A model generated the notes under the pieces. The model was not told where the DNA came from. It did not search any database and was given only the letters and a program-made list of their open reading frames with translations. Source: Romanomermis culicivorax (Eukaryota > Nematoda > Enoplea > Mermithida > Mermithidae). From it: DNA of 64,000 nt. Numbering within the stretch: the first letter of the stretch is position 1; each line of letters opens with the position of its first letter. The stretch is taken from positions 992,001-1,056,000 of the forward strand of contig CAWUHX010000029.1 in NCBI GenBank assembly GCA_963922205.1. Direction: 5' to 3'. Shown in pieces: positions 7,115 through 61,831 of this stretch. The translations under genes were made by a program, and so were the position numbers.

Positions 7115-8880
7115 GTGCATCCAATACCGAAGATGAACATTCCAGTAGTGGATCAACAGCAGCGCCGGCCAAGGAATAAGCCCACTCAAGTATTCGATAC
7201 TTACAATCAATTATATTGGGATAATGAGCGGGAGGAACATCGCAAAAATCCTTGTAAAAGCTCATTGGAAGATAAACTGGACCAAATCATGAACAGGTTA
7301 GATGTTTATGATAGCACATTTGGTTCACAGAAAGCCAGTAAGGCACATGAATCCAGGCAAAGCAATGCTGGCTGTATGGAATAAGGTGGTGCATTGAAGT
7401 TTGAGCAGACCCAGGAAGAGTTAATGTGGCAAAATGATGGTATCACTCTACAGAATGACTGTAGATGGAAAGACCAAAAGTCAAGTCTAGGTCCTAAAGA
7501 GCAGTATATGCCTCATTTGCCCAACTACCTCAAGAGTTGAGCAAAGAGTGAGCAGTTGTGGTTTTGAGGAAAGCGTAAAAAACCCCAGTCTGTTAAATTC
7601 AACTGTGTCACAACAAAGCAGTTGTATTAGGGGAGAAAACCCAAATGTCAGGCAGCAGGTTATGCCTACAATGATTCTGATTGATCCTGCCTTGTGGGTC
7701 AATCCAGCACAGGCAGGCCCGACTGTCTATGACATTGAAAGGGCTATCAAACCCAAATTACTGCAATCAGATATGCCAAGCAGACAGTTCCTTGCTTTTC
7801 TAGTGGAGCTAGAAGGTGAGTTTCGAAAGAATACTCCCGATAAGGTGAAGCTAGAAGCATTAACCTGATTGTCAAGGGATTTGCTGAAGGAATTGGCTGA
7901 AGAGTCAATGACCTAGGAAGCCCGAGACAAAATTTTGAATTATTGTGCTCCAGACTGTAACCTAGATATGCTCAAACGAGATCTGTTAGATATTAAACAA
8001 GAACTAGAGGGAGCAGCAACCAAATTTTTGAAAAAGGGTTAGAGCACATGTGAATCTCATTTATCGGAGTGAAACTAAAGAGTTTAAAAATAAAGTAATC
8101 ATTGAAACCTTTTTCTATAGAAGTTCTCCAACTTATCAATTAGAACTGCAAAATCGAACTGGCAAAATTCAAAAATTAGCATGATCTTTCCCAAGCAGTC
8201 TATGAGATAGAGTTAAAACACAGAAATTCAATCAGAACATTAGGGCCAAGAGAACAGCCCATGATAATAAATACGGCACAAACAGAAATTGCTGAGGAGC
8301 AGCAAGCTGATGTGAAGGTAATCCAAAGGCCTTATGAAAGCGCCCAAAAACGCAATAATGACTTTAGAAGACCAAATATAGAAAGGCAAACTCTGATGCA
8401 ATCTTTGAAAAATCAATTGATAGATATAGCAGATGAAGAAGTACTTGAATTACCTCCGCAGCAGGCCATATTGCTTCAGCAACAGCCTGTTGACTAGCAA
8501 AAAAAGGACTCCCTCATGGTGGCTTTATCTAAGGAATTTATTAAAATAGCACAATGTTATGAAGAAATTAAGAACTCTGCCAAACCCCAAGAGGAAGCCA
8601 TAACTGCTTTAACTCAGAAAGTTGAAAAAGTAAAAACGAAAAGTCAACAAGAGGTTCAGCAGCGAAAAAGGTGTACTTACCAAGAAAATAACACCCACAA
8701 CAGGATTGATTGTAGAACTTTGAATTTTTATAAGGGTCTACAAAATCGTGGAAGGGGTGGAAATAGTGGAAGAGGTTTTGAAAGAGGCAATCATAGAGGA
8801 AGTTTTGAAAATTTCTGAGGTAGAGGAAATTTCATAGGTAATTTCAGAGGAAATTACGGAGGAAATAGAGGAGGTTTTGG
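7115..8880 (+). pseudogene. gag of Gypsy element 1 (capsid and nucleocapsid)
   Basis: Pieces in shifting frames: 7115-7381, 7548-7868 (capsid-like, with YDIERAIKPKLLQSDM and LVELEGEFRKNTPDKVKLEAL, closely matched in the gag at 35409-36497), 8261-8494 and 8516-8815. The nucleocapsid end has a knuckle C-X2-Q-X4-H-X4-C at 8672-8713 followed by an RG/GRGG-rich tail, a common RNA-binding arrangement. Stops at 7868 and 8816 and missing frames show it is inactive. Confidence 0.75.
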
Positions 8881-9289
8881 TAAGGAAGGCAAAAGGGGAG
8901 CTTATCAAGTTTCATTTCCTGAGGACAAGGCAGAAAGTTCGCAAGAATATGCCAAATTCCAGGAATAAGTAAAGTTGAAGAAGCTCAGGGAGAAGATAAG
9001 ATTGTTACAGGCTACCACCCAGCTGATGTTACTAGGACGGAATCTAATGGACCAACAACTAGTAGTCCCAAATCAGAGTTCAAATACTCTATTAACTCCG
9101 CAGAAGGTAGTTAGTCAGTCGCAAGCCTCCAGGCAGACAGACTAACTGTTGACTAGTGGTGTTAATAGCGTACAGCAAGAACCGATGATGGAGATGAAGT
9201 TGTGTGGCCTACATAACTGTGCCATAGAAAAGAAGGAGAATGTGCTGGAGATGGAATGCAGTGCCGAGTATGGTAGAAAGAGAAGAAAA

Positions 9290-9720
9290 AGATAAAGAAA
9301 GAAGATAACTGGATATGTTAGCTAGATACCCTAGAACGCAGCCATTTCACATCAGAGTAACTGTGTGTTCCACTACTGCAAAGGCACTGATTGACATGAG
9401 AGCTCAGTGTTCAGTTATGTCGGGTGATTTCTTGAAAAAATCACTTGGACTGGAGTATACAGTGTAGCCTAGGATCCTGAAAGTCACTGTTGCCAATGGT
9501 AAAGTAGTGAGTGCACATGGTTACGTTCAGTTTCAAATGGAATATGATTATGGCCCCTTTCTGGTTAAGGCTTTCATAATGCCAGGGTCCACAGAGGATT
9601 TGATATTGGGAACAGACTTCCTAGCACATCGGGAAGTCAACACGGTAATAGATTTTGGAAAAGGTTCAATGACAACGATGGGTGTAAAGAAGAGTATTGA
9701 TTTGTTAACATCTGATAAGA
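9290..9720 (+). pseudogene. Retropepsin-like aspartic protease domain of Gypsy element 1
   Basis: The sequence ALIDMRAQCSVMS occupies the place of the catalytic ALIDTGAQxSVIS motif and is followed 65-70 residues later by DLILGTDFLAH, the conserved C-terminal ILG motif. The catalytic Asp is kept (9393-9395), but the next two residues are Met-Arg instead of Thr/Ser-Gly, and a TAG interrupts the domain near 9466. The enzyme would be inactive. Confidence 0.75.
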
Positions 9721-10359
9721 AAGCCATTCCAATAGTTGGGACCCATAATCAGATGATAGCAGAATCAAAAGAGGAAAATCCTATTGAAGAAGATCAAAGT
9801 TCGGCAATCCAGCAGCTGGAAGATCTAGTTCCTGTAGTGGCATATAATAGAATTTACATCCCACATGGAACAGATCAACTAGTAAAAGCTGAATTGTGGA
9901 ACAAATCCTGGGCAAATAGGATTAATGGAATCATCTTAGAAGGAGATGATTCAGAAACAAGATTCAGAATAGAGGATACTATAGTTGATGCTTCAAAGGA
10001 AGACTTTGTATTGATGATCTCCAATAATAAGGGTTCTGGTTGCCTGATAGAACCTAATCAAATTCTTGGCTACTGTAACTCTGTATTTAGGGGACAGTCA
10101 AGTGTATCAATTTTACAGGCTAGAAATTGTGGAAAAAATAGCCTAGAGGGTATTTTAGATGCCAAGGAATCAAAATTCAATGGAGTTTTGTTTCTGGAAG
10201 CATTGAATAAAATGACCTCTAAAGCTACTTTGTCAGGGGAACAGAAAGAGATGGTGATACGGCAACTCGTGGAATACCGGGATGTATTTAGCCTACCTTA
10301 TGACCCCCTGACAACTACTCCCCATCTAACTTGTAAAATGAATACAGGTGATGCTAGTC

Positions 10360-11660
10360 CTGTGGTGAAGCATTACTACAGAGCTGCCATTGAAGAGTGA
10401 CCATATATCAGAGAACATGTGCAGGAAATGCTAGATAAGGGAGTCATAGAGCCATCCAGATCACCCTGGGTGGTGCCATTATTCCTAGTAGGGGAGAAAG
10501 ATGGGTCGCTCAGGCCGGTTGTGGATTTTAGAGGCTTGAACAAGGTCATGAAGGATGATTGATATCCAATACCCAGAATGGATGATTATCTGGACTGCCT
10601 CGGGAGAGCAAAATTTTATATGACTCTTGACCTCAAGTCCGGTTATTGGCAAGTGCAAATGGAAGAGGGCAGTAAAGAAAAGATTGCTTTCTTGTGCCAA
10701 GAAGGGTTGTTTCAGTTCAAGGTAGTGCCCTTTGGACTGAAAAATGCACCAGCCGAGTTCCAGAGGATGATGGAAAGAATCCTACATCCTCATGTGTGGA
10801 AGATATGTCTAGTATATATAGATGATATCATAGTGTTCTCAAATACATTCGAGGAACACGTAGAAAATTTAAAATTGGTCCTGGATGCTCTGAGACGAGC
10901 CCAGCTTACACTTAAACTGGAAAAATGTGAATTCCTACCAAAGAAGGTGCATTTTCTTGGTCATATTTTGGATTCTAATGGAATTTCACCGGATCTGAAA
11001 AAAGTGTGAGCTATAAAAGAGTTTGAATTCCCAGACTGGGTCAAGCATATGCAAAGGTTTCTTGGAATGCTCCAGTGGTGTAAAAAATTTATACCACATC
11101 TGGCAAAGCACACAGAACCTTTGTATAAGCTGACGGCCAAGAAAAGGAATAAATGGCTCGTCACAGAGGATCATTACAAAGCATTTAATGCTTTGAAAGA
11201 AGCACTGGTATTGGTTCCATTTCTTAGGTACCCAGTAATGGATGGCTCAGCCCAATTCATTCTGCAAACTGATGCCAGTGGAACAGCATTAGGGGCTGTT
11301 CTATATCAGGAATCTGGAGATGATTGTTGGGTCATAGCATATAATAGCCGAGTGCTAAAAGAGGACAAGAAAAAGTGGTGTGCTACTGAAAGGGAGTGCC
11401 TCGCAATTATGTACAGCCTCAAAATCTATCCACACTATTTATTGGGGCAGAAAGTACTGATTAAGACTGATCACAGACCACTGTTATCAATGAAAGTCAA
11501 TTCAACAACAAATGACAAGTTGAAACGGTGGCATGTGATCATTAATCAATAGAACCACAAGTTAGAATATGTGCCAGGTAGACAGAATGCTATGGCTGAC
11601 TTTCTCTCTAGAAAGCACGAGCCAGAGGATGTGGTGAAGTCACCACCAAAGTGGAAGAGT
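10360..11660 (+). pseudogene. Reverse transcriptase-RNase H of Gypsy element 1
   Basis: RT motifs in order: SPWVVPLFLVGEKDGSLRPV, DFRGLNKV, LDLKSGYWQVQM, VVPFGLKNAPAEFQRMM and the catalytic LVYIDDIIVFS (YIDD codons 10815-10826), then HFLGHI. RNase H follows: LQTDASGTALGAVL, TERECLAIMYSL and KTDHRPLL, ending with GRQNAMADFLSRK. The catalytic aspartates of both enzymes are present. Stops at 10398, 10560, 11007 and 11550 break an otherwise continuous reading, so decay is mostly by point mutation. Confidence 0.9.
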
Positions 11661-11884
11661 ATCTTAAAATTGGATGTATTTTCCTCTGATGTCAAAAGAA
11701 TAAAAGAACAAGAACAACAACAAATTTCTTTAGTGGCCAAGAGGAACAACATCTCTGTGAGAATAAATCCCACAAGGAGGAAGAGAAGGAAGAGGATGCC
11801 CCAATTAGTCCTGAGGACGAAAGGGAGCATTCTAAAGGAGTAGGAGCAGTGGTAACCTAAAGCAAAGCTCATGTTTCGGAAAAG

Positions 11885-13236
11885 ATGCAGAAAAAAAATC
11901 AGGAAACTGATAAATCTGCAATACCTAAGGAACAAGACAATGTGCAGTGGTTGTACCCTGGAAAGGAAGAAGAATTTGATAAACCAGGAACATCAGGTGA
12001 TAAAGAGATATCTATTGGCCTAATGCTAGATAACTTGATGAGCAAACTGCGAAAAGCAGATGAAAGCTTAAAGCCAATCTGGGATAGATTAGGTGCAAAT
12101 AGCACCACGAGGTATCACAGTGGGTTCTATGAAGAAAATGGTGTATTGTATAGGGAAACTGAGGCAGAAAGTGAAGACCAATTGGTCGTACTTGAAAACC
12201 TTAGGGACACTGTGCTGCATCAGCATCATCATGCAGTAATAATGAGACATCAGGGTTTGAGAAGAACTGTGTCACAAAAGATAATTATTGGTTGCCTGGC
12301 ATGGAAAAAGATGTCAGGGAGTGGATAAAATACTGCATTGTCTGTCAAATAGCAACTGCAGAAAAGCCATCCATCTCTCCATTGATACCCATTGTGTCAA
12401 ACAGTCCACTTGACATTGTATCTGTGGATATAGTAGGAATTTCGCCGGTGGGAGAAAGAATGCCTTATGTTATAGTTTTTCAGAACTATTTCCCAAAGTG
12501 GGTTGAAGCTGAAATGATTCCAGATCAATCAGCAAATTCAGTTGTGAATGCGTTCTTAGAAGCTATAATATTTAGACATGGAACAGCGGCGAAACTCTTA
12601 TGTGATAAAGAATCTTGTTTTACTTCAGATTTGATGAAATTAGTCTGTATTTTATTGGAGTGCAAGGAAATCTTCACTACTGCTTACCACCGTCAGGGTA
12701 ATGGTATGGTAGAAATATTCAACCAAACTCTAATGAAACAGCTGAGAAAAGTAGCTATCGGTGAACCGGATAGCTGGCCAAGATATCTCAAATCAGTGGT
12801 CTTTGCTTATAATGCAACCCCACACGCAGTGACGAAGGCATCACCATTTGCATTGTTATGGGGCCATGAAGCAAAGTTTGGGATGAATTTTTCAAAAGCT
12901 CTTAAAATAGTAATGCTTATGAATTATGAGGCATACAAATTCATCCTAACTGACCACTTAACCAGGCTTTATGGTATTATTGCCAAAAATATCCAGAAAG
13001 CAGCTGAAGCTAGCAAAAAATATTTTGACAAAAAAATTAAAAACTCGGTTTTTAAAGAAAATGATTGGGGGCTTCTTAAAGTTGATAAGCACAAGAAATT
13101 GGGCTTAACTTGGGAAGGAGCCTTCATTATTACTGATGTTTCAAGATTGGAGGATAATGTGATAACAATCGCACATTATGATAATATTTTGCTACAGCAA
13201 AAGGTTTCAGCAAGTAGGCTGAAAATTTTTCGCTAG
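11885..13236 (+). pseudogene. Integrase of Gypsy element 1
   Basis: An HHCC-type zinc-binding end (LHQHHHAVIMRHQG ... YCIVCQ) crosses a frameshift near 12290. The catalytic core keeps the D,D(35)E triad: VSVDIVG, LLCDKES and MVEIFN, with exactly 35 residues between the last two acidic residues. A GPY/F-like module (LTWEGAFIITDV) precedes the end KIFR-stop at 13236. No chromodomain was seen. Confidence 0.88.
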
Positions 13237-14263: not shown

Positions 14264-14506
14264 TTGGTTTCTATAAAGGGACACCCAAGAGCCAAAAAGG
14301 CTAAATATCAAGTTCCCGTTCCAAAAATTTCAAAAGTTTCCAATTTTACAGTGTTTTGCACAAAGGTGTCAGAGTGTCCGAAAAGTAAAGGGTATCAGTG
14401 GGTAAAATTACCCAAAGAGTTCATAAAGGGTCCCAAAAATGCACATAAAAGAGTAAGAGTGTGTTTGAGCAAAAACCTAAATTTCTCCTGGATTTTTAGA
14501 CTATAA
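14264..14506 (+). pseudogene. Unrecognised ORF upstream of exonuclease-like relic
   Basis: Eighty codons, basic and with two cysteines in KVSECPKSKGYQWVKLPK, show no family I recognise. It precedes the 14520 reading by 14 bp in a different frame, so it may be the N-terminal part of the same decayed protein. Confidence 0.35.
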
Positions 14507-14519
14507 CATCCATCAGGCA

Positions 14520-15215
14520 ATGCGGATAGTGGAGTCAGAAAAGTGGTTTTTTGCCACTTTTGAGTTCTGGCTGACTAATCCAATGGAGCCAATAACTGTT
14601 CCCATGGGAAGTGTGGAAAGGATGGTAAAACATCTCGAAAGCAGCACTTTTGGAGGCATGAACATTGTTAGCTTCGACATAGAGAAAGTGAACCGCGAGG
14701 ACACTAAAAAACTATTTAGGTGGGGGATCGATAATGAAAAAGGCAACCAGTTTGCTAGATTAGTTTCATTTGCCTACCTAAATGGTTAAATGTTCGTACT
14801 TGACTTAACATTACTGCAAGAGCAAGAGTGGGACATTTTTTTGCATTTTTTAAGCTCAGCGAAGTAGTCCGTTGACTACGCCGTTTTAGAGGACATAGTT
14901 TCAATTGTTAATGTCCGAGGATGCGGAAAAAGCACCGATGGTCACAATTTGTCTGATGCCATTAGATGTAGTATCAAAGATGGAAATCTGGGAAGATACT
15001 ATAATCTAAGCGTCACCTTAAAGCAGATCATGGGAAGCGAGATTACCAAATCCAGAAAGGCAGGAATCTGCCCAGAAACATTAAAATTGAAAGGCCTCTT
15101 TGCCGAAGTGTATTTGGCTGATATCAGTCCTCACCAGACTGATTTTTGTCTTTTACGTAATAGACAAAGTGTGGCTAAAGAAAAGGTTACTCAAGAGATA
15201 GAGGCTACAGTGTAG
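14520..15215 (+). pseudogene. 3'-5' exonuclease-like (DEDD/RNase D fold) relic
   Basis: One frame runs from 14520 to 15215 with stops at 14787 and near 14865. The core NIVSFDIEK contains a DxE pair (Asp at 14676, Glu at 14682), followed by ARLVSFAYLNG, MFVLDL and EWDIFLHFL, the strand-helix pattern of DEDD exonucleases after motif I. Further on, DAIRCSIKDGN, YYNLSVTLKQIMGSEITKS and VYLADIS resemble the RNase D region leading to the motif III Y-x3-D. It also aligns by eye with the minus-strand sequence at 20887-20660. This is inference from motif order; a profile search would be decisive. Confidence 0.5.
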
Positions 15216-15361: not shown

Positions 15362-15836
15362 TCACATGGACAAACAAAACTGGCAAGGGGAGGGACTCCC
15401 CCTGAACAGGCTTTCACTGGGGAGGCAGAAGGAGTCCTTTGGAGGAGCACAGTGGGGCCCATGGAGTCGTTGTAGTGCTTTGAGCCAATTTGGTGATGTG
15501 TAGGGTGAGATCTCCTGACCCAGTCTGCAATTAGCCAGGCTGAAGTACATCAGCAACACCACAGCTCGAATCGTCACTCTGTCTACACAGAGATACTGGA
15601 GCCCACCAGCATAGGAGTCCATGTGGATGGTAGGGTGAGGCTGGCCACTAGCTTTGGGGGCAATCCCGAGAAGAATGACAGAGAATGGCTGCATGGCAGG
15701 CAAGGGAAATGACAATCTTATGGTGGTGGGGCTGTTTGAGGTAGAACAATTTGAAGCATTAGTACTGTAGTAGGCGGGTAAAAGCTTTGCGGCCAGGAGT
15801 TAAACTAGTAAAAACAATAAAGCGCAACAAATGAGA
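15362..15836 (-). other. Convergence zone between plus- and minus-strand units
   Basis: The plus-strand relic ends at 15215 and the minus-strand coding-like signal fades here. A 117-codon minus frame (15715-15362) and an 81-codon plus frame overlap; neither is recognised. Confidence 0.3.
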
Positions 15837-17078
15837 TTAAGATAAAAACAACTGGGTGAAAATGAGAGGAGTAACAAAATAAAACAAGGTTACTGTACAA
15901 AATGGCAATCGATCAATGGGGGCAGTGTTGGCATTGGTCCAACGAGGTGGAGCATGGCTGATTGCGGTAATTGTTGCGATTGTTGTAGTAATCATCGCGA
16001 GGGCAGGAATGGTCTCGATGGTGGGAATTGTATTGGTCGTAGTAGTGGTCCATTTGAGAGTGATATAGAGGGCCGCCGTAGCAGTCAGCATCGACCCTGT
16101 AATGTGAAGATGATGTATTGGTGTCGGCGACAATAGGTTGGTTCCAGGCCATGGGATGGGCTGTGGAACTAGAGTTGGTCTGTCCGATGGTAAGCCTGTG
16201 GTCAGCAAAGGTCCCAGCTCCATTGGGTCGAAAGATTCTGACAGCACAACAGCAGAATTGGGTGGTTGGTATTGCTGTGATATTGGAGGAAAATTTGGTA
16301 AATGTCAGCGGAATTGTATAGCAATGGGAATGGCATATATTGCGGGTAGGCCATCCACAAATTGATAAGGCCTATGGCAATATTGTTGGCTTGAACCAAA
16401 CAACTTGGGTTATTGAGACCATGAGCTTTGTACAAAAACAAGGCAAAATGGGCAGTTTGAATGGCATCTATACGCCCTAATTTTTCCGCCCAGATACCAT
16501 TGACCCATCACAAAATGAGAGTAGTGATGGCGGGAGAAAGGGGGTGGATTCGGCTGGCGCTAGCTGGGGCGGTAGTGTTTGCAGAAGTATTGAAAAATTG
16601 CTAAAGAGGCATTGGTGGTGCGGATGTGAACAGCTATGGTGACATGAATACTCAATCGACTGAAGAAGTTGATCAACACCATTTCTTGCATAGTGCGTCG
16701 AGAGAAAAATTTGACATTTGGATCGATATGTGGTGGAAAACACCCCATTGCCAGTGTGATGGTATGCAGTTGATCCATGGTTCAGAAACGAGTGTAATTG
16801 GGCAATGTGATGGCCTGACTGGGCAATTGTTGTGTGCTGCAGATCACCATACCAGCCTGGTGTGGCTCTGAGCAGGGGGCGGTGGCTATGACCAATGTCC
16901 GCTGCAAATCTGAGGTACTCACCATTGTGGAAACCATGGAAAATGCGGCTGGAATGGAAGTGACGGTGGTAGTAGACAGCAATGCCCAGGCTGTGGTTGT
17001 CAAGGATGCTGTCATCATGGCAGTTTCAGACTTTGAAGAGGTCGCTTGTTCAATATCTATAGGCAGAGCTGGGGGCAA
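15837..17078 (-). pseudogene. Degraded terminal part of the minus-strand retroelement
   Basis: Several overlapping frames show Pro/Ser/Thr- and His/Tyr/Asn-rich composition (for example HYYDQYNSHHRDHS near 16040), similar in style to the segment after the knuckle at 22.1 kb. This could be a second, tandem gag-like region or the C-terminus of the same unit. Frames cannot be ranked with confidence. Confidence 0.3.
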
Positions 17079-17178
17079 TGGAGCTTTGACCTCGGGTTAG
17101 GGCCATGGATTTTTGAGCTCTGCTAGCTGGGGCTGAACTTTGGCTTCATGGTGTAGTGTGCTAATATAGTTGGTCGAA

Positions 17179-17731
17179 TTAGGCCGTGAATGGCCAAAAG
17201 TGCAGGATGCTCATTTTGATAGAAACTGGTAGAGTGAACTTGATGTGATTGTTCGCTCTGCGTGCAATGGTGAGGAGCAGTGCCATAATGATCATGATTG
17301 CAGCTATCATGAGAATCACCATCATGGCAATGGGATTGATCTCCTTCGCGGCGGTGATGATCATCATGTTGGTACGAGTCATGTCGAGATCAGTGAGAAT
17401 TGGACCTTTGGGCCAGTGTTGCCTGTGGTGGCAGCATCGAGGTTTGATCAGTTTTTGCTTGAGTAGTCAATTTTGGAAGCAGTTGTTTCATGGGAGTGAC
17501 TTTCCGCTGGGACATCATGCCAGTAGATGAGGTGGCATGACCAGCCATTTTGCATTCTTTGAACTTGGCCCTTTGCTTGGCCCTTTGCTCACAACATTTC
17601 GTTGTCCTTTCGCTGGGTGTTTTGCTGCAGTCAGTACAAGACGTACTGGGCTGCAGCGTACGTTTTGCATGGGGTTCATCCGTCAAGTGGGCTTTATGTG
17701 CTTTGCAATATTCGACCTCTTGTTGTTGCAT
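17179..17731 (-). pseudogene. Cys/His-rich segment of the minus-strand retroelement
   Basis: The reading 17731-17390 has EYCKAHKAHL, CTDC, TKCCEQRAKQRAK and KECKMAGHA, a basic Cys/His-rich stretch like a zinc-binding nucleic-acid-binding region. After a stop the same general region becomes strongly histidine-rich (HDDHHRREGD, SHDSCNHDHYG). No exact zinc-finger spacing could be fixed. Confidence 0.4.
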
Positions 17732-17972
17732 TTTTCGTTTTACAGAATGATCATAATGAATGGGCTTTTAAATTGGGTGGCCATGTTTATCGAGCTGGGT
17801 GGTTGAGGTACTTGGTTGTTGTTGAACATCATCTGTACTGTCCGCGGCAGTTGGGCAACAGTAGGCTGAGGCGCCAATTGTGGGACAATTGCAGCTGTTT
17901 GAACCGATGGTGTTTGTCATACTGAAACATCAAAGTTTCAGTAATTTGATCACATAAAGCCTGTGGATAATC

Positions 17973-18666
17973 TCACCAATGATGTTCAGGGAATAACATG
18001 TGAGGCCACGGAGTCAGGAATCCGTAGGCTTTAAGAGCCGCAGCCAAAGCAGTTAATTGAGAGTCTGAAATAAACTGTTGAGAAAAATGGACTGGTGGAA
18101 TATACCAGGCAGTGGCAATGGTAGCAATCATTGGTGGACTGGGTAGCACTGCGGCCCAGGCCAGGTAAAGAGAAGGGTCGACTGCCAGCTGAACAACATC
18201 CATCAAAGTTTGGGCGTCAGCAGTGGATTCTTCAGGTATATCCATCAACATTTGGTTGGACCTGTTCATCACCTCTTCGGATTCTCTTTTGGGTTGATGG
18301 ACTGGAGTTTTCATCTCCATGCAGGTGGGTGCAATAGTCGATATGTCTTCCAGCGTTAGCTCCAAAAATTCATTCATCGAGGTTGCTGAAACTGAAAGCT
18401 CCCCGGGGGCTGACAGCCTGGTCAGTGAGGAAGTGACAACATTGGCCAGTAGTTTTGCTATATTCAAATAGAAGATAGGCGTTTCAAGCCAGTCGTTATC
18501 TGATGGTTCGTGAGAATTGGTTGATGGAGCATTTCTTCTGTGGTCAACACTTGCGCCGAGGCTGTAGTTGGCAATGGGTAAGTGTAGATGGTGCAGGAAT
18601 TGAAAATTGTTTACTGAAGTCAATGTGGCCGAACAAATGCAAATATAGGTAGAACACGCTATGTGG
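17973..18666 (-). CDS. Continuation ORF of the minus-strand retroelement after the MITE
   Basis: Sequence left of the MITE continues the interrupted ORF for a few dozen codons to a stop near 18544; a second frame from 18623 to 17973 (216 codons) reads ELTLEDISTIAPT, ESEEVMNRSNQMLMDIPEES, WAAVLPSPPMIATIATAWYI and is rich in Ser/Thr/Pro/Met. Its length and composition suggest real coding, probably shifted by one base relative to the upstream ORF. Function unknown. Confidence 0.45.
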
Positions 18667-18674
18667 GTTGGAGG

Positions 18675-19206
18675 CAGTGTTTTTTTTGTACATGACCCAT
18701 TTGCACATGTACAAATGAGTAGGCAATTTTCATTTGTACATATTTGTACAATGAAAATATTAGTTTTTTAAGCTATTTTGTTTGGGTACTTATTGGTACA
18801 GATATCGAATCAAATATATTATGATTTTAGAAGAAGTGAGACCGCTCTAAATAAAATCAAAAAAATACTCAACAACAACAAAACTAATAAAAATTGACAA
18901 CGACAACAAAGTTAAACCTACTGATTTATCTAAGTACTTCAATTCAATTAAGACTCAATTTATTATTTCCATCCAAAAAATTCCAAAATTTTCAATATTT
19001 GGAAAATCATAAAATTTATACCACAGTAATAAGGCGCAGTTCACAACATGCAGCACAGTTCCGCTGAGACAAGCGGAAATCTCAATTTTTGTTACAAATT
19101 TCGGCAAAATTTTGGATTCTTCTCGTTTGTACATGTACAAATGACGACTCAAAGTTCATTTGCCGCTAGAAATTTTCATTTGCCGACAGCAAAAAAAAAA
19201 ACACTG
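18675..19206. mobile_element. hAT-type MITE inserted in the retroelement ORF, perfect 8-bp target duplication
   Basis: The 532-bp element starts CAGTGTTTTTTTTGTACATG and ends GCAAAAAAAAAAACACTG. The exact direct repeat GTTGGAGG flanks it (18667-18674, 19207-19214). Subterminal CATTTGTACA / TGTACAAATG words recur at both ends. Ends and duplication length are diagnostic of hAT transposition; there is no coding capacity. Confidence 0.9.
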
Positions 19207-19860
19207 GTTGGAGGTATAATCAGTTTCATCGATTTCGATTTCTACAACATTGACTTCCATATGTAGGTCTTCATGAAAAATAATTGGGTGCAAAGCAAAA
19301 TCATTGCAAATATAGTTTCTAGAATCATGGTCAAATGCTGGTTGATGTTCCTGGATGTGATTCATCCAATCTGTTAGATGAGCATGGGGGTTAATGTTGA
19401 TGTAGAACCACATACATTTGTACAAAGCGGTGTGAGAAACATCATCTAGCCTTTTAGCCTGTTGAGCTAATAAGTTGTTTATGTAGGTGAATTTGGTGGC
19501 AGAACAAGGTGAGGCTATGACTGCAGCAAGCGGCATGGTAACCATCAACTTGTCGAGCCAGCTGCCATCGACCTGGAAAATACTAAACAGGGTGTTAGGA
19601 AGGTAAGGATAATGTGTACCATGATAGGTTCTATAGTGAAGCGGTTGATCCGGCACATCACGCTCTGTCCATATGTCCTCAACATCAGTTGGGAGGGGCG
19701 GGTCCTTCTCAATATCCAAACAAGCGCAGACTTCTATTTTGTAGATTGGGGACCCGGGGAAACTGAATAGATCATTGAGGCACTTTATGAGACCTCTCTT
19801 CATGGCCGAGGCAATGGCTGCTTGAAGGCACTTAGGATTGTCGTAAACTTTCTTGGGCAA
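19156..19860 (-). CDS. Unrecognised ORF downstream of the exonuclease-like domain, 3' part cut by a hAT MITE
   Basis: This is 234 codons as read, but the last 17 or so (from 19206) belong to the inserted element. The protein begins with an acidic approach (SDDED just upstream) and LPKKVYDNPKCLQAAIASA, then a basic helix (MKRGLIKCLNDLF), DIEKDPPLPTDVEDIWTERD and a Cys/Trp-containing middle. I know no named domain. Without the insertion the frame joins cleanly to sequence at 18666 and below, so the ORF was intact when the MITE landed. Confidence 0.55.
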   Translation of the reverse strand: MPKKVYDNPKCLQAAIASAMKRGLIKCLNDLFSFPGSPIYKIEVCACLDIEKDPPLPTDVEDIWTERDVPDQPLHYRTYHGTHYPYLPNTLFSIFQVDGSWLDKLMVTMPLAAVIASPCSATKFTYINNLLAQQAKRLDDVSHTALYKCMWFYININPHAHLTDWMNHIQEHQPAFDHDSRNYICNDFALHPIIFHEDLHMEVNVVEIEIDETDYTSNQCFFFCCRQMKISSGK

Positions 19861-20018
19861 GAGTAACGGATCCTCATCATCTGAAACTTCCGGTGATCAG
19901 TTCCATTCATCATACTGTTTCTTCTTCTTCTTTTTTGGCGTTTTCAGTACTGTCAACAGTTTCAGGTCGGTCGTCCTTGTCAACGTTTTAATATCGTGGA
20001 AACTGTTAAGCTGAGTGC

Positions 20019-20887
20019 CTAAACAAAAAGATTAACCATGGTTGGGCGATGTGCAATCATACATAAAAAATAATAGGCTGATAGAACCTTTTCTTGCATA
20101 ATCCCTGGTAAGGCAATTTGCGAGAGTGTTGGATAGATGACAGCATTCAAATCGGCAGGCACTACTTCAGTTATTGGAACATTGTGGAATGTGGCCATTA
20201 TGGTTTCGGCCAGCTGCTCGATTTTGGTGGCATCCAACAAGTCATGTGGATAAAGGGACGCTGCATTGTAAATTTCGGGGATAAAGCCATAATGCCCAAA
20301 GGCGAGAAACAGCAATATCAGATAAAAGTTGTCGAGGGCAGCATAGGCGAGGATATTGGGTGGCAAATACTAATTCTTTAGATTATTGAAAAACTGGAGC
20401 ATGTCGGGGAATTTGAGGGTAAGATGAGAAACACCGAGCGCCCACATGGTGGAGATGGTGCCTTTCAGCGTGCATTTCTCTGGCATAAATCCGATTCTCT
20501 GAGCCAGCTCAAAGAGCAGTGGGTTGATGGTGATATTGTGAATGACTCTGTAGGTGTTGATTGAAATGGATAGACTAAAGCATCTTTGTTTTTCCTTTGT
20601 CGATCAGTGCAAAATTGTGTTCTGAGGTGGACATAGATTCCACCCCAATTGTCGGCTCCATGGAAAGAGATGATGATGGTGTGTTCACCATCAATGAGAG
20701 AGAATAAGGTAGTCCAATCCTTGGGTGTTGTGGCGAAGGTTTCAAAGACAAGTATGGCTCCATTGGGGAATGCGAGTTGAACATATCGGGGATAGCTGGA
20801 AGCATTGGAATCAGCTGGCATTTGGATAGCGAATTTGAAATTTTTCATATCATTGGTGAGAATGGATTCCATATTGAAATTAACCAA
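20019..20887 (-). pseudogene. 3'-5' exonuclease-like domain (DEDDy type) in the minus-strand retroelement
   Basis: From 20887: VNFNMES at the motif I position (N-x-E instead of D-x-E; codons 20875 to 20867), YPRYVQLAFPNGAILVFE, DWTTLFSLI, then SFHGADNWG (motif II-like). After frame changes come AQRIGFMPEKCTLKG-type sequence and, at 20366-20330, LPPNILAYAALDNFYL, a good match to the Y-x3-D motif III of RNase D/WRN-type DEDDy exonucleases (Tyr 20345, Asp 20333). The catalytic Asp to Asn change and frame breaks imply this copy is inactive. Family assignment is by motif order only. Confidence 0.55.
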
Positions 20888-20999
20888 GGTATAGCCTCAG
20901 AAATTTGGCATGGTCTGGGTGATGAGCAGGACCCCCAAACAGCCGGGCCTGAGGAAGATGGGTGGCCGCAATATGTTGGGCAGCCGTGTGAATAGCTAT

Positions 21000-22150
21000 A
21001 AAAACCAGCACTCTAGGTCTGCAATGGGGACCAATCTTTGTACATTGTGTCCTAAACAAAGAGCAGGCGCGTTAGAGCACATAGGACAAAAGGGGTTGTG
21101 GGCAGTGGCAACAGTTGTGCCAGTCCAAAAGTTGACCTTAATTCTAGACCAAGTTTGTTTTGCACCAAAATATGAGAGGAAAGGGTACCCAGGATGGCTG
21201 CAACTTGGGCAGCAATATCTCTGAGACAGGCGGGTCTTGACAATTTCGATCGGATCACTTGAGCGAGGCAACTAAAATCGTGGTACAGGCCAGTCAAAGC
21301 AGTGGCCCGCTGTGCTGATGAGTTGGGCCATAGCTTGATGATTGAGGGATTGCAGCAGCTGACCAGGGGTGTTGGGTGTTGTGGCAGAGGCGAAGATATC
21401 CCATGGGGTACCAAGTACAGGTCAGAGGGCATGCACAGAGAAAGAAAGGCTGAAAGAAGTGCATGCAAAGAATAGAAATATCATTGCAACAAAAGCTGAG
21501 GTCATTTCGATGTGGTTGTTGTTCTCTTCAATGAACGTAGCATTCATTGATGTTGAGCAACTCTTGATAGGGTGGGGGTTCATCAGCAGGGGATGATGTA
21601 GAGGGAGTCATCATTTTTCGAAAAATTTACAGAGTGGTGGTGAGATTCGACTGTTTGGAGCAAAAACAAGAATGAAAATGAGTAAAATAAAAGTAAGCTG
21701 CTGAAAGGTGAAAAGAATGTAAAGTGAGAAATGTGCAAAACTAACATTAATTAGGAAGCACTACAAACAATACTGTTAGGGGAAACTAAGGTCGACCTTT
21801 CCCAATTATTCTTACAAGAGTGAAAATGCCTGATCCTGGGGCTTACAATAGGCACCACTGAGGCGATCTCTTCAGAGAGCATGACCATGTTGGTGGTAGA
21901 TGTTGGTTGAACATTAGCATGCACATCCAACATGTTAGCCATGGCAGGCGCAGAAATTGAGGGTAATGCTGGTAGTGCTAGCAGAATTTTGGAAGATTGA
22001 GAACTAGTGTGGGATGAGTCTGTAGGCTTACTAACATAAGGAGCCGGCCAGGCATTATAATGAATGTGCTGTTCCTACGGCGATGCATATTCGTAATTTG
22101 GGTAGACAACATACGTATTCTGAACAAAATCATTTGTACGAGAAAAATGT
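21000..22150 (-). pseudogene. Degraded linker/protease-position segment of the minus-strand retroelement
   Basis: Readable pieces include SSKILLALPALPSISAPAMANMLD split near 21950 and a 63-codon stretch ending at 21751. The place between nucleocapsid and exonuclease would hold a protease in a standard element, but no DTG/DSG motif was found. The frames 21271-20996 and 21468-21052 overlap antisense and cannot be ranked. Confidence 0.3.
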
Positions 22151-22159
22151 TTACCATGA

Positions 22160-23170
22160 TTATAATATCCATGTGAACCCCCCGAGTAATTGTCCCCCTT
22201 CGCTGTCGGAGCTCCTCGATGGGGTCTCCAATTACATTGCCCACAGAAATCATTGGAATTTATGGGGAAATCACAGGTGGGTTGCTGGGCATTGTATTTG
22301 GATGGGCCTTTATCATTTCTTGGGTTTTGTTGGGTGTTTTGACACTTTAGCCAGATGCAATCTTCGATATTGTGTGTGGGGATTATTGGGCATCACACCA
22401 AAAACCAGTAGACTGATTTTGAGAGGGATGCAAGTTGTGTCAGCTGATGGAATGGACAAATTGGTCATGGTGATTATCAGGGCTTCCAGCAATGATCAAC
22501 TATGCAGCGGTCTGCAGGGGGGTTGTGGTCCTGATAGTGATCTTGAGAGCCGTCTGTGCTATGGTGACGGTCAAATCAGCAGAATGCAGGCTGAGGTGAT
22601 CCCGGCATCACAGCATCCAGAATGGCCTGGTTCACAAGGATAGGCCAGTCAGCGATGCCGAGCACAACTTTGGTGGCATTAAGGACCCTGCCGGCTTTTG
22701 CGATGGCATTGGCCAATTGTTAAACATTTCTGAAGGTTTTAGCTTGCTGGCCCATAGTCAATTGGTAGAAAACAGGCATTTTAGTTAAAAAGGTGTGAAT
22801 GCCTTGTTTGTGCCGGAAAGTTTGGTCTTCATTTTGATATAATAATTGGACATCATTACCTTACTTAGGAAACCTGCAGGTTCTTCTCCAGCTTCAGGCA
22901 CAATTGCAGCAAGTTCATGTTTAAGGGTCATTTGATTGCAATTGGGAGCAAGCTGGAACATAAGGAAATTTTTTCAATCTTCATACTGCATCATATCTTG
23001 GATCATATGGCTTGGTGTATTGTGGGTCAGGTGGTGAAGAGCACTCATCTTTACATGGTTTGAGGCATTGTAACCAAATTCATTTTCCAGCCAAATAAAG
23101 AAGCACAGAAGGCATTTGTTGGTTCCGGCATGGTTGATCATGAGGGGATGCATATTATCCACAATTGTCT
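22160..23170 (-). pseudogene. Capsid/nucleocapsid continuation with zinc knuckle
   Basis: The knuckle reads C-X2-Q ... THNIEDC over 22397-22357 and matches the knuckles at 8672 and 34924 in spacing, but spans 41 instead of 42 bases, so a one-base deletion shifts the frame. It is followed by IWLKCQNT, by CGQCNWRPHRG and by a Gly/Tyr/His segment (GDNYSGGSHGYYNHGKHF). Several stops lie upstream in the capsid region. Confidence 0.5.
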
Positions 23171-23174
23171 TTAT

Positions 23175-23804
23175 TCAACTGTCTTCTTTGTGGAGTGACA
23201 AGCGTGGCTGGTTAAAGCGAGGTTGCAGGTTTTCAAAGCAATCATCAGGCGGGTAGTCCAAAAATCCAAATGGGTGGGCTGCAGGCGGCAGACATCGAAT
23301 TGGCGCTGGGCAGGCAATATTATCTTCACTGGGAGGCGTACTTGAAAATTCATTATTGTAGAGGGTGTCTGTTGAGGGCGCTTTTGGTTTGACACAAGAC
23401 AGTGGGCGGGCGTAGGCCAAAGCAGGCTCAGTTTCCCTGAAAGTATAGTTTGTGATATAAATATCACACATATCCTGGCAGTAAAACTGGGAACCAGCAG
23501 GCAGTGGCCTAGGCATTGGCGGATTGTTACGCACTGCTGCTCCTATTGCAGAAATCAATTGTTGCGTTTGTTGGGCAAGGGCCCCAAATTGTGTGTTTGT
23601 AGCTTGAGCTTGTTCTTTAATTACACGTTGGACCTGCAATTGCTGGGCTTGTAATTGATCGGAAAGGGTGCCAATAATTTGATCAATAGTTTGGACTGTG
23701 GAAACATTGTTTTTGATTCTTGCGGCAGTGGTATTCAGTTGTTCAAGGGCATCACACACTTCTAATTGGAAGTTATGGCCTTCATTGGCATTGGCAATGG
23801 CCAT
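23175..23804 (-). CDS. gag-like ORF of the minus-strand retroelement (N-terminal part)
   Basis: The 209-codon ORF has a glutamine-rich helical/coiled N-terminal half (DALEQLNTTAARI, QLQAQQLQVQRVI, QQTQQLISAIG) and a proline-rich middle. Coding-like sequence continues beyond the stop in several frames to the knuckle near 22390, as expected for the capsid part of a gag protein. Identification as gag rests on position before the knuckle and composition, not on a named domain. Confidence 0.5.
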   Translation of the reverse strand: MAIANANEGHNFQLEVCDALEQLNTTAARIKNNVSTVQTIDQIIGTLSDQLQAQQLQVQRVIKEQAQATNTQFGALAQQTQQLISAIGAAVRNNPPMPRPLPAGSQFYCQDMCDIYITNYTFRETEPALAYARPLSCVKPKAPSTDTLYNNEFSSTPPSEDNIACPAPIRCLPPAAHPFGFLDYPPDDCFENLQPRFNQPRLSLHKEDS

Positions 23805-23823
23805 ACTGCTGTGGTGGGTTCAC

Positions 23824-23839
23824 CCCTGTATTAGCGCCA
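23824..23839 (-). promoter_or_regulatory. Possible primer-binding site of the minus-strand retroelement
   Basis: TGGCGCTAATACAGGG lies about 20 bp upstream of the gag-like start and begins with the TGG expected for a site pairing with a tRNA CCA end. No adjacent LTR end was confirmed. Confidence 0.35.
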
Positions 23840-24009
23840 TCTCAGTTTCCCCTCATTTATGGTTTTGGATCCCTGACATCTATTATTATTTTCAAATCAA
23901 ACTATCTACTGGACACCATTTAGCCCTAGCCCTCCTTAGCCGATCTACCAAAATCCACCATAGCCATCCACTGTGACCCATGCCCCTGTTCAATTGTGTG
24001 CCATTGCCG

Positions 24010-24350
24010 TTCCCCAGCCAGACTAGGTAAGTTTCAGGGTATATTATTACTAGGGGTAGTTAAGAACATTCCTCCTTAAGCAGGTTTCCCCCCTAGCTTT
24101 CCCCCTGGATACCAGTAATTCCCCACCCCTGAGGTCGGGTCAAAAGGGATCTCCTGGTTCACAATTGGGATCCCAGCTCCTAGGTCATCTTAGGGATAGC
24201 CCAGTTTATCCTTCATACTGAACAGGACCAATATTGGTCACCCCTAACCTGATGGTGTTGTCCTTATTCTATAGCAGTAACCCCAGAGCAGCACCACAGT
24301 ACCTATAGTTTCTTCTATAGACAGTACTGACTGGGTTAGGTAAACCAGGC
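24010..24350 (+). repeat. 5' LTR (part) of Gypsy element 2
   Basis: It shares with the right copy GACTAGGTAAG, AGGTCATCTTA, TCACCCCTAACCTG, AGCAGCACCACAGTACCTAT and CAGTACT. Exact ends are uncertain because divergence is high. Confidence 0.65.
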
Positions 24351-24485
24351 ATAGCTCTCACCTCAGTTCTGGGCCAACGGCCCCTTACTTTGGTGACCTA
24401 TCTCTCCTAGGGGGACATTGGGCTATAGTTTACCCATGGTGGCTTAGTCAAGGCTATCCTACCAATAATGCGACAAGGCAAGGTT

Positions 24486-24690
24486 GGAAAATCGCCCTCA
24501 AGTCTGGCAAATCGCCCTTAAGTCTGGCAAATCGCCCTTAAGTCTGGAAATCACCTTCAAGTCTGGAAAATTTCCTTCAAGTCTGGAAAATCACCCTTAA
24601 GTTGGGTAAATCTCCCTTAATTTGGGTGAACCTCCCCCTAAATCAGGTAAATCTCCATCAAATCTAGTAAATCTCCTTCATGTTAGGTAC
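24486..24690. repeat. Minisatellite, unit about AAATCGCCCTTAAGTCTGGC
   Basis: About ten units of 19-21 bp decay gradually to the right. It lies in the leader between the 5' LTR and gag of Gypsy element 2. Confidence 0.85.
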
Positions 24691-27054: not shown

Positions 27055-27790
27055 ATGAGATTGGGTTCATTGCACCACCTAATGCTGTTTTCTTTTCAGA
27101 ACAAAAAACCGCCAGATTCAATACTGATTAATCCCTTACAAGTGCCAAAGCTTGCATCGGACATCATCTTTGACTGCAGTTGGGTCAAAGCCAATGCCGC
27201 AAGCTCACCCAGCATCATCCCGTGGGACCGGACAGCATTGCTCCACCTATTGGTTGCTTACACAGACCTCTATGCTGTTGATGAGAAGAACACAGGCACC
27301 ACTGATCTCGTTCAACACTAGATCAGCACAGGTGAGGCCCACCCAGTCCAGCATTTTCCTTATCAGTCTTCAACTAAGGAAAAAGACCTCATCATGCTAG
27401 AAGTCAAGGCACTACAGGATGAAAGTATTATCGGGCCAAGCACTTCACTATGGACAACAAATTCTGTCCTGGTGTGCAAGGAAAAGGGTTCTCACTGTAT
27501 GCATGTTGATTTCCGTGGCCTTAATGGGGTCACAATAAAGGATGTCTACCTCTTACTGTGGATCAACATCTCAGACACTCTAAAGGGAATGAAATACTTC
27601 ACTAACCTTGACCACTAACCTTGACCGCCTATCAGTCAATCCCAATTGCTGAGGCAAATGAGGAAAAGATGGCATCCAATACACCCATTGGACTTTCTGA
27701 GTTCAACTATCTGCCTTTCGGCTTGTGGAATGGGCTAGGGACATTCCAATATCTCATGGATCTTCTCCTAACAGGAATCCAGTGATGCAT
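27055..27790 (+). pseudogene. Pre-RT segment and N-terminal half of reverse transcriptase, Gypsy element 2
   Basis: LLVAYTDLYAVDEKNTGTTD leads to the linker before RT; then IMLEVKALQDESIIGPST, VLVCKEKGS, VDFRGLNGVTIKD and LKGMKYFTNLD give RT motifs up to LDLTAGYH (degraded). The next recognisable block, the LPFGL-equivalent near 27715-27770, is frameshifted. Stop codons at 27319 and 27616 interrupt it. The catalytic YxDD is absent because the following part of pol is deleted. Confidence 0.7.
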
Positions 27791-27794
27791 CACT

Positions 27795-28200
27795 CTCATT
27801 CAACCCTCTGGCCACAGATCTTTGATGTATCCATGTATGATATGGAGGTCCAGCAGCATTTCACCAACACCCTGACCTTAATCCAGAGTTGGATTGAGAA
27901 ATCACAAGAAGCCTATGCTTGGTCATATGATGGCAAAGTCAGAGATGTCTCATACGACATAGGGGATGATGTGCTCAAACTGCACACTTCCAGCAAACAT
28001 AGACTTACTCCTAAATTGCTGCCCATTTATGATGGACCCTATCTTGTTACGAATGTGGCACACCCTAATTTCAGCATTCATCTTGAGGTGGATCAGGAAG
28101 AGACTGTCCATGTCAATCAACTTAGAGGTTATGTGTCTCCAGATGCGTGGATTGAAGCAGACAAAGCACCTTCCACTTCACAGGCAGCAGCAACCCCACT
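27795..28200 (+). pseudogene. Integrase C-terminal end, Gypsy element 2
   Basis: MYDMEVQQHFTNTLTLIQ, DIGDDVLKLHTSSKH, YDGPYLVTNVAH and VHVNQLRGY form the GPY/F module typical of Ty3/Gypsy integrase C-termini. It follows the RT relic with no RNase H or DDE core between, marking a deletion of roughly 2 kb of pol relative to element 1. Confidence 0.75.
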
Positions 28201-28329
28201 GACCACTTTGCTTCCTTTTTGCTTACTCCAACAAACAGAGACTTTACACCTAATCAGATTGAACCACATCTTGATGAGGAGGTCTCTGACCCCTAACATC
28301 AAGGTGCTCTTCTCTTCTTAGTCCTATCC

Positions 28330-29570: not shown

Positions 29571-29574
29571 CTTC

Positions 29575-36497: not shown

Positions 36498-36566
36498 CTT
36501 CCCTTCTTTTTGAGGAACCTTCAGGCATATCAGAACTCTGGGTGACTGTGCTTTTCAATGAGGCAA

Positions 36567-53530: not shown

Positions 53531-54138
53531 AGTGGTTGATAGTCTGTCTCCAAATCCTCTATCCCGTTTTTTATGTTAAAATCTGTTCACACACAAGGAC
53601 TGACCTGGTGATGAGAATTAAGTCATCTTGTACTGAAGCCGCCTCATCTGGTACCGAGTTGCAACTTATTGTCCAGGTATGGTGGTGCAGAATTTGGTGC
53701 AAACCAATTTCTACGTGTTCTTTCGTTGGTAGACTGCAGCTTGTCTGAAGGAAGCATGTCGTTCGTTTCTATTAGGTTTGTTGGATGATTGAAAATATTG
53801 TTAAATATTTTCAAAACAAAATTTGTTGAAAATTTTTTTACATTTTGAACAATTTCTTTTTCCCTATAGTTTTTACATGGGTTTTCTCAGACAAAACCAG
53901 TTAATATATATTTAATCTCCTGTCTGACCATGCACAGGTATGCTGTTGAGCCAACTCTAAAATCCTGTAACCCTAAGCAATTTTCTCATTTGTCGTTTAT
54001 TGTTATTTGTTATGCTTGTGTGCAATTCTTGATGATGGCATACCGAAAAGGGCGATTATTAACTTTAATTTGTGCATGCTTAACCTCGCTTCATGCAGGT
54101 AATGTGATGTTTAAGATATAGATTCAATAATAGCAGTC
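53531..54138 (+). other. Region upstream of UPF2
   Basis: It is expected to hold the UPF2 5' UTR or promoter. CAG|GTAATG at 54097-54105 looks like a splice donor and TAGCAG at 54131-54136 an acceptor, but the gap is too short for both to be used. No coding homology was seen. Confidence 0.4.
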
Positions 54139-61811: not shown

Positions 61812-61831
61812 GTATGTAAGAAGGACGCATG

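What the first reader, a model, noticed from the sequence alone, without database searches (positions are those of the whole stretch)
15362..23850. Retroelement-like unit carrying an exonuclease-like domain instead of recognisable pol
The minus strand shows a gag-like ORF, a C-x-H-C zinc knuckle and then, where protease/RT would be expected, an RNase D-like sequence (VQLAFPNGAILVF, SFHGADNWG, LPPNILAYAALDNFY) plus further ORFs of unknown function. I know of no standard LTR or non-LTR family with this layout. It may be a novel element, a host multigene family, or a chimeric relic.
Basis: partly seen in the sequence, partly recalled or inferred. Interest (0 to 1): 0.75.

Follow-up and report, generated by a model that had tools for sequence, protein, structure and literature searches.

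The report
Decayed nematode retrotransposon with exonuclease-like ORF3
A broken copy of a Ty3/gypsy-type jumping element of a mermithid nematode has lost its polymerase genes but keeps a large extra gene, in the place where retroviruses carry env, whose first part looks like an RNA/DNA-trimming 3'-5' exonuclease; I found a comparable arrangement in print only for bdelloid rotifers.

Summary
On the minus strand, 23.8-16.2 kb is a decayed mobile-element copy: gag with a zinc-knuckle remnant, then a long coding unit from an ATG at 21614 whose first part is RNase D-like. Three protein searches gave 126 distinct relatives, all from Romanomermis culicivorax. The exonuclease does not replace pol: 12 of 126 relatives carry a protease, RT/RNase H or integrase piece in the same gene model, N-terminal to the exonuclease in 12 of 12. 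A second, ~25% identical exonuclease remnant lies on the plus strand (14481-15215), 1.2 kb behind the integrase of another gypsy element. So this is ORF3, in the env position, of a Ty3/gypsy lineage; pol is missing here. The exonuclease call is good, not airtight: motifs DxE / D / YxxxD in order; profile match to RNase D-type exonucleases above 299 of 299 column shuffles, but hhalign's own probability is only 19%, Pfam gives nothing significant and AlphaFold models are poor. This copy is catalytically dead (two of four acidic residues are Asn). LTRs were not found; the genome search did not complete (20 calls). DEDDy ORF3s are known in rotifer LTR elements; the nematode case, with a unit of up to 5.4 kb, looks like a new variant.

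The parts
21751..23819 (-). gag-like region, broken over several frames (23819-23175, 22392-22075, 22074-21751 and pieces between)
   Evidence: ORFs; 22020-21832 matches residues 2-63 of P0024, which continues into an aspartic protease; no Pfam hit above its cut-off for the four gag pieces tested (best TRIM_CC E 0.0015, below cut-off)
22357..22392 (-). zinc-knuckle remnant CPIIPTHNIEDC (C-x5-H-x4-C)
   Evidence: read directly; kinship to gag knuckles is recalled, not tested
21615..21831 (-). [quoted passage not shown] holds two pyrimidine-rich stretches ending in CAG (last base 21701 and 21651) just before the ORF3 ATG, i.e. splice-acceptor-like
   Evidence: sequence; P0024 and P0025 carry protease and RT-linker parts before their ORF3 part; splicing is inferred
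16187..21614 (-). ORF3 unit, broken; from ATG at 21614 (MMTPSTSS) to the last base matched by a relative; 18688-19170 is not covered by any relative and may be an intron or a boundary between two ORFs
   Evidence: tblastn of 126 relatives: 0 of 143 neighbouring match pairs out of order; 11 of 126 relatives reach from above 20000 to below 18600; gaps
20019..21058 (-). RNase D-like (DEDDy) exonuclease domain with its N-terminal extension; frame changes near 20573 and 20070
   Evidence: ExoI Asp replaced by Asn at 20875-20873, Glu kept 20869-20867; ExoII Asp replaced by Asn 20650-20648; ExoIII Tyr 20345-20343 and Asp 20333-20331 kept (counted from the translations)
19897..19944 (-). Lys-rich linker (KTPKKKKKK...) ending at a stop codon in this copy
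   Evidence: similar linker in P0022, P0023, P0026, P0027, P0028
19156..19896 (-). second conserved ORF3 region, no known family
   Evidence: matches P0028, P0092 and P0097; no Pfam hit at E<=1
16187..18767 (-). C-terminal Pro/Thr/Ala- and His-rich region
   Evidence: matches P0026, P0052, P0062, P0066, P0069 in the same order
7491..13236 (+). second, different Ty3/gypsy element: gag-like 7491-7868, protease 9315-9791, RT 10563-11009, RNase H 11010-11552, integrase 12205-13236
   Evidence: Pfam RVT_1 5e-32, RT_RNaseH 1.6e-29, Integrase_H2C2 2.2e-7, rve 2.1e-7 (31.6 bits, 1 bit below its cut-off); protease by tblastn of P0024, E 5.9e-16
14481..15215 (+). divergent exonuclease-like ORF3 remnant behind the plus-strand element (FDIE motif kept, two stop codons, no motif III found)
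   Evidence: tblastn of P0022, 25% identity, E 2.7e-6 in the window; 8 of 126 relatives match here at E<=1e-3

Best explanation
The feature is a decayed copy, without pol, of a Ty3/gypsy LTR-type retroelement lineage of a mermithid nematode, probably Romanomermis culicivorax. The order in relatives, pieced together from separate gene models, is gag - PR - RT - RNase H - IN - ORF3. ORF3 sits where env would be and probably was read from a spliced subgenomic RNA, because acceptor-like sites lie just before its ATG. The ORF3 unit is long (up to 5.4 kb, at most ~1,800 codons, fewer if the uncovered 483 bases are an intron) and starts with a DEDDy 3'-5' exonuclease-like domain. Shown: repeated unit, order, co-occurrence with pol pieces, motifs. 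Inferred: when intact, the domain trims 3' ends of nucleic acid for the element. My first guess is trimming of element RNA/cDNA ends during replication (about 45% of my belief about function). Next come degradation of host small RNAs (about 20%) and proofreading for the RT (about 10%); the rest is binding without catalysis or something else. This copy cannot do any of it.
For: 126 distinct relatives, all from R. culicivorax (one search counted 122 and listed 120). 12 of 126 carry a protease, RT-linker, RNase H or integrase piece: 9 by comparison with the window's plus-strand pol, 11 by comparison with one another, union 12; in 12 of 12 it is N-terminal to the ORF3 part. Pfam agrees for P0024 (gag-asp_proteas 1.1e-6), and for RT_RNaseH (1.5e-13) and Integrase_H2C2 (9.1e-11) in one member each, listed for P0068 and P0051. 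The integrase C-terminus of P0122 and P0108 has a GPF motif and runs into the ORF3 part. A second gypsy element in the same window has an exonuclease-like remnant 1.2 kb after integrase. Exonuclease: majority residues D-x-E, D, Y-x3-D; hhalign of 38 rows to 13 RNase D-type exonucleases P 0.0012, score 28.58 against at most 26.69 in 299 column shuffles; an HMM of the 13 gives >=3 bits in 10 of 126 relatives and in 7 of 2646 shuffled or reversed controls (relatives are not independent of one another).
Against: No significant Pfam or NCBIfam hit to an exonuclease. hhalign's own probability in the supporting run is only 19% and it aligned another stretch opposite ExoII; without the two plus-strand window rows the score falls to 24.99 and 1 of 300 shuffles exceeds it. 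hhalign to enterobacterial RNase D alone gave probabilities below 1% and was out of register. AlphaFold models are poor (mean pLDDT 42 and 55) and the fold search found nothing at E<=0.001. Catalytic columns are no more conserved than others among the sampled copies (percentiles 0.35-0.80); 4 of 10 copies that cover all five positions keep all five. Gene models may be wrong joins: P0070 also holds an astacin piece, and 114 of 126 relatives show no pol piece. LTRs were not found; primer site and target duplication were not identified. The genome could not be searched.
Confidence: 0.77

Rival explanations
1. A host multigene family with an RNase D-like domain that happens to lie next to retroelements; the pol-exonuclease gene models are prediction artefacts.
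For: R. culicivorax gene models are fragmentary and at least one is chimeric (P0070 with astacin); no LTRs seen; 114 of 126 relatives show no pol piece.
Against: The pol piece is N-terminal in 12 of 12 cases; another gypsy element in this window has the domain at the same place; the gag tail lies directly upstream in the window; relatives look like decaying repeats (29 of 43 losses at the four acidic catalytic columns are D to N or E to K, counted).
Confidence: 0.1
2. A stable non-autonomous subfamily: gag + ORF3 without pol, moved by autonomous relatives, rather than a one-off deletion. (A sub-case of the best explanation, not exclusive with it.)
For: In the window the matched gag tail is followed within about 220 bases by the ORF3 ATG, with no pol match between.
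Against: Only this one such copy is known; no other copy's DNA could be examined.
Confidence: 0.2
3. The domain is not a 3'-5' exonuclease but an unrelated retroelement protein whose motifs match by chance.
For: No significant Pfam hit, weak structure models, hhalign probability 19% and ExoII misaligned.
Against: Motif order, 299 of 299 shuffles below the real score, two separate stretches in register with the HMM, DxE kept in the ~25%-identical plus-strand copy, published precedent in rotifers.
Confidence: 0.15

Closest known systems
Vesta and Juno LTR retrotransposons of bdelloid rotifers with a DEDDy ORF3 (Rodriguez, Kenefick and Arkhipova 2017, PMC5408684; abstract, found passages and section 3.1 read)
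   Same: RNase D-like DEDDy exonuclease in ORF3 of an LTR element with a PR-RT-RH-IN pol; acquired at least twice there, and here present behind two diverged gypsy elements
   Different: Nematode host; long ORF3 unit with a second conserved region and a Pro/Thr-rich tail; no dUTPase hit in the plus-strand element; the paper reports the motif changed to DEED, here the majority is DEDD. Sequence kinship could not be tested because the rotifer sequences are not held
Ty3/gypsy elements with env as third ORF (errantivirus type; recalled)
   Same: Third ORF after integrase, acceptor-like sites before its start
   Different: Exonuclease-like domain; envelope features were not looked for beyond Pfam
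RNase D / WRN / Rrp6 / MUT-7 cellular exonucleases (PF01612)
   Same: DxE, D and YxxxD motifs in order
   Different: Spacing ExoI-ExoII 75 and ExoII-ExoIII 106 residues in P0033 against 57 and 70 in E. coli RNase D, by my count; no significant single-sequence match
ExoN of nidoviruses and arenaviruses (PMC7968707, found passages read)
   Same: Exonuclease domain taken up by an RNA-based replicator
   Different: No sequence link tested; resemblance of situation only

Membership tests
Ty3/gypsy (Metaviridae) | pol order PR-RT-RH-IN | tested here: met
   Plus-strand element in the window. For the minus-strand family pieced together from separate gene models: protease, protease-RT linker, RNase H, H2C2, integrase C-terminus. 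Pol is absent from the minus-strand copy itself.
Ty3/gypsy (Metaviridae) | GPY/F module at integrase C-terminus | tested here: met
   IQPDFIGPF in P0122 and P0108, read directly; that this is the module is by eye
Ty3/gypsy (Metaviridae) | gag with zinc knuckle | tested here: inconclusive
   CPIIPTHNIEDC remnant; no Pfam gag hit
Ty3/gypsy (Metaviridae) | Two LTRs, primer-binding site, target-site duplication | tested here: not met
   No repeat pair flanks the unit; 24004-24384 repeats at 29567-30385 but not near 13-16.5 kb. The copy is truncated or very old, so the lineage claim rests on relatives.
DEDDy 3'-5' exonuclease (PF01612) | Profile match above Pfam cut-off | tested here: not met
   Best E 0.092, 13 bits against cut-off 23.6; 1 of 126 at E<=0.1
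DEDDy 3'-5' exonuclease (PF01612) | Four acidic residues and Tyr in ExoI-III | tested here: met
   Majority residues of the family: D 26 of 33, E 27 of 34, D 53 of 72, Y 56 of 61, D 52 of 62. Not met by this copy (two Asn).
DEDDy 3'-5' exonuclease (PF01612) | DnaQ-like fold | tested here: inconclusive
   Models with mean pLDDT 42 and 55, no fold match
DEDDy 3'-5' exonuclease (PF01612) | Metal-dependent 3'-5' exonuclease activity | not testable with these tools
   needs protein
Rotifer Vesta/Juno-type elements with DEDDy ORF3 | DEDDy ORF downstream of pol | tested here: met
   12 of 12 pol-bearing relatives and the plus-strand element
Rotifer Vesta/Juno-type elements with DEDDy ORF3 | dUTPase between PR and RT | tested here: not met
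   window:9468-10400 has no Pfam hit at E<=0.01; tested only in the plus-strand element
Rotifer Vesta/Juno-type elements with DEDDy ORF3 | ORF3 groups with rotifer ORF3s in a tree | not tested
   rotifer sequences not available here

The most novel reading that the evidence does not exclude
Nematode gypsy elements, old enough that two lineages in one window share the domain at only ~25% identity, carry their own 3'-5' exonuclease in a very long ORF3 and use it against the host's small RNAs (R. culicivorax is reported without Piwi and without 5'-triphosphate small RNAs; a Dicer/RdRP pathway is proposed for its clade I relative T. spiralis; PMC4323106), or as a proofreader that permits a retroelement of more than about 11 kb, in parallel with nidovirus ExoN.
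Probability: 0.12. Interest if true: 0.8.

Novelty: new variant of a known kind. Interest (0 to 1): 0.47.

Why it matters
Enzymatic ORF3s in the env position were reported from bdelloid rotifers with unproven purpose. A separate, apparently long-lived case in another phylum would suggest that retroelements gain something definite from an exonuclease. The nematode in question is reported to lack Piwi, so the case bears on how elements live with other silencing systems. It also tells annotators that over a hundred 'uncharacterized' R. culicivorax proteins are probably pieces of retroelement ORF3.

Tried and rejected
Exonuclease in place of pol: rejected, the pol piece is upstream in 12 of 12 relatives that have one. 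Host gene family: kept as rival at 0.1. LTR pair around the unit: not found; the 24004-24384 / 29567-30385 repeat does not recur at the 3' end. PDB sequence searches with the two single ORFs and with alignments A1 and A6 gave nothing credible. hhalign to enterobacterial RNase D alone failed, so I widened the reference set. Two AlphaFold jobs were poor and the PDB fold search was empty at E<=0.001. IMG/VR: no relative of P0033; no relative of the RNase D alignment either. Selection on catalytic residues among sampled copies: not seen. Literature searches for a nematode case (listings): I recognised none beyond the rotifer paper and a review that mentions it; five papers were opened (PMC5408684, PMC10879605, PMC4323106, PMC5718144, PMC7968707), none read whole; subscription journals are mostly not held.
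Full report
What is there. The 143-residue ORF 20896-20465 matched 21 proteins, all from Romanomermis culicivorax, with E from 3.8e-43 to 3.1e-4. Two further searches (7 proteins; 122 counted, 120 listed) raised this to 126 distinct proteins, all from R. culicivorax. The window is therefore most likely R. culicivorax or a close relative; identities of mostly 60-75% mean these are other copies, not this locus. Many gene models are fragments; lengths run from 63 to 808 residues.

One repeated unit. tblastn of the 126 relatives against 15-24 kb places them on the minus strand in one order: 0 of 143 neighbouring match pairs are out of order. 11 of 126 relatives reach from above 20000 to below 18600, the furthest to 16187. 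The unit thus comprises an N-terminal stretch from an ATG at 21614, the exonuclease-like domain (to 20019), a Lys-rich linker, a second conserved region (19896-19156) and a Pro/Thr/Ala- and His-rich tail. No relative covers 18688-19170 (483 bases; smaller gaps of 193, 78 and 91 bases start at 16592, 17477 and 17831), so an intron, or two ORFs, is possible, and the figure of up to ~1,800 codons is an upper bound. 15362-16187 has no match and is left open.

Where it sits in the element. In one search, 9 of 126 relatives match the pol of the plus-strand gypsy element of this window. In one search, 11 of 126 match pol pieces cut out of five of them. The union is 12 (P0015, P0017, P0024, P0025, P0036, P0051, P0062, P0067, P0068, P0092, P0108, P0122), and in 12 of 12 the pol piece comes before the ORF3 part. 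The pieces cover aspartic protease, the protease-RT linker, RNase H, the integrase zinc-binding domain and the integrase C-terminus with a GPF motif. Such gene models can be wrong joins (P0070 has an astacin piece behind the exonuclease), but a constant order in 12 of 12 is not expected from random joins. The order is gag - PR - RT - RH - IN - ORF3; no single model holds all of it.

A second case in the same window. The plus strand holds another gypsy element (gag-like 7491-7868, PR 9315-9791, RT, RNase H, IN to 13236). P0022 matches the plus strand at 14655-15128 with 25% identity and E 2.7e-6 for the window (0.013 when scaled to 360 Mb). 8 of 126 relatives match between 14505 and 15128 at E<=1e-3, and there were no matches in the window outside 6.6-13.4 and 14.3-24.1 kb. 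The stretch TFGGMNIVSFDIEKVNREDTKKLFRW lines up with NFCGYTLVGFDTESIMAADMKNFQFT of P0021 (by eye). It has two in-frame stops and I found no motif III. So an exonuclease-like ORF follows integrase in two well separated lineages.

Pol is missing here. The window's gag tail (22020-21832) matches residues 2-63 of P0024, which goes on into protease; in the window the ORF3 ATG comes about 220 bases later, and the protease and RNase H pieces of P0024, P0025 and P0015 match only the plus-strand element. Two pyrimidine-rich stretches ending in CAG lie just before the ATG, consistent with a splice acceptor for a subgenomic ORF3 RNA (inference).

Is it an exonuclease? For: the majority residues are D and E of DxE, D, and Y and D of YxxxD in the right order. 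An HMM of 13 fetched RNase D-type exonucleases scores 3 bits or more in 10 of 126 relatives and in 7 of 2646 shuffled or reversed controls, in two separate stretches in register (the relatives are not independent). hhalign of 38 rows (36 relatives and the two plus-strand window pieces) against the same 13 gives P 0.0012 over 124 columns, score 28.58; of 300 column shuffles one gave no output and 299 reached at most 26.69; the reversed alignment scored 12.64. Against: hhalign's own probability for that match is 19.2%, and it put another stretch opposite ExoII. Without the two window rows the score is 24.99 and 1 of 300 shuffles exceeded it (25.57). Pfam and NCBIfam give no significant exonuclease hit. 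hhalign with enterobacterial RNase D only gave probabilities of 0.5-0.9%. AlphaFold models had mean pLDDT 42 and 55, with no fold match at E<=0.001. By eye, DWTTLFSLVDGEHTIVVSFDGADDW of P0009 and DWSPLKAILRDPSITKFLHAGSEDL of E. coli RNase D align without a gap and put the ExoII Asp at the same distance from DW. I put about 85% on a DEDDy exonuclease origin.

State of this copy and of the family. Here the ExoI Asp and the ExoII Asp are Asn, and the frame changes near 20573 and 20070, so it is dead. Among relatives the catalytic columns are not more conserved than their neighbours (percentiles 0.35, 0.43, 0.46, 0.52, 0.80), and 4 of 10 copies covering all five positions keep all five. Of 43 losses at the four acidic columns, 29 are D to N or E to K (my sum), as expected from C-to-T decay; a role of DNA methylation is a guess. 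Past function is indicated by the majority residues and by DxE in the divergent plus-strand copy, not by selection among present copies.

What it does. When intact, probably a 3'-5' exonuclease encoded by the element. Rodriguez et al. (PMC5408684, passages) suggest 3'-end processing of element RNAs, or mention a silencing role like that of mut-7, and note that activity is unproven. R. culicivorax is reported without Piwi, without detected 5'-triphosphate small RNAs and with DNA methylation machinery, while a Dicer/RdRP pathway is proposed for T. spiralis (PMC4323106, passages); interference with small RNAs is thus a fair alternative. Proofreading for a long retroelement is a further, weaker idea by analogy with nidoviruses (PMC7968707, passages). 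The 11 kb is a sum: matched gag 2.1 kb, ORF3 unit 5.4 kb, and pol 3.9 kb as in the plus-strand element (9315-13236).

Comparison. The nearest published system I found is the DEDDy ORF3 of rotifer Vesta and Juno elements, shared with Athena retroelements; a review repeats it (PMC5718144, passages). Shared: position and enzyme type. Different: host phylum, length and content of ORF3, no dUTPase hit in the plus-strand element, DEDD majority against the DEED reported there. Kinship could not be tested. Literature searches showed no nematode case that I recognised; PMC10879605 (passages) reports 68.2% repeats in R. culicivorax without naming such elements in the passages shown.

Limits. The window's own genome could not be searched, so LTRs, copy number in DNA, breakpoints and intact full-length copies are unknown. 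Gene-model evidence is second-hand. The function is inference.

Noticed in passing
window 54115-61819 (+): ORFs of a probable host gene with a MIF4G domain (PF02854 E 9.4e-20 for 60621-61136); looks like UPF2, a name recalled and not tested
   Followed up: partly
window 35409-36554 (-): Gag-like ORF whose residues 243-289 are 57% identical to residues 78-124 of the plus-strand gag-like ORF at 7491-7868 (E 2.9e-14): another copy of that family in the opposite orientation
   Followed up: partly
window 27701-28321 (+): ORF that reads like an integrase C-terminus (PIYDGPYLVT...) of yet another gypsy-type element; no Pfam hit at E<=0.01
   Followed up: no
window 24004-24384 and 29567-30385: Direct repeat, 71-77% identical in two pieces, just upstream of the minus-strand gag; the second copy holds a ~425-base insert with GACCCCCAGCAG-type repeats near both ends. 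Possible LTR or leader remnants
   Followed up: partly
P0001-P0126 (R. culicivorax proteins): 29 of 43 losses at the four acidic catalytic columns are D to N or E to K, as expected from C-to-T decay; may reflect methylated CpG
   Followed up: partly
window 24485-24676: About ten 20-base tandem copies (TGGTAAATCTCCCTTAAGTC) on the 5' side of the minus-strand element
   Followed up: no
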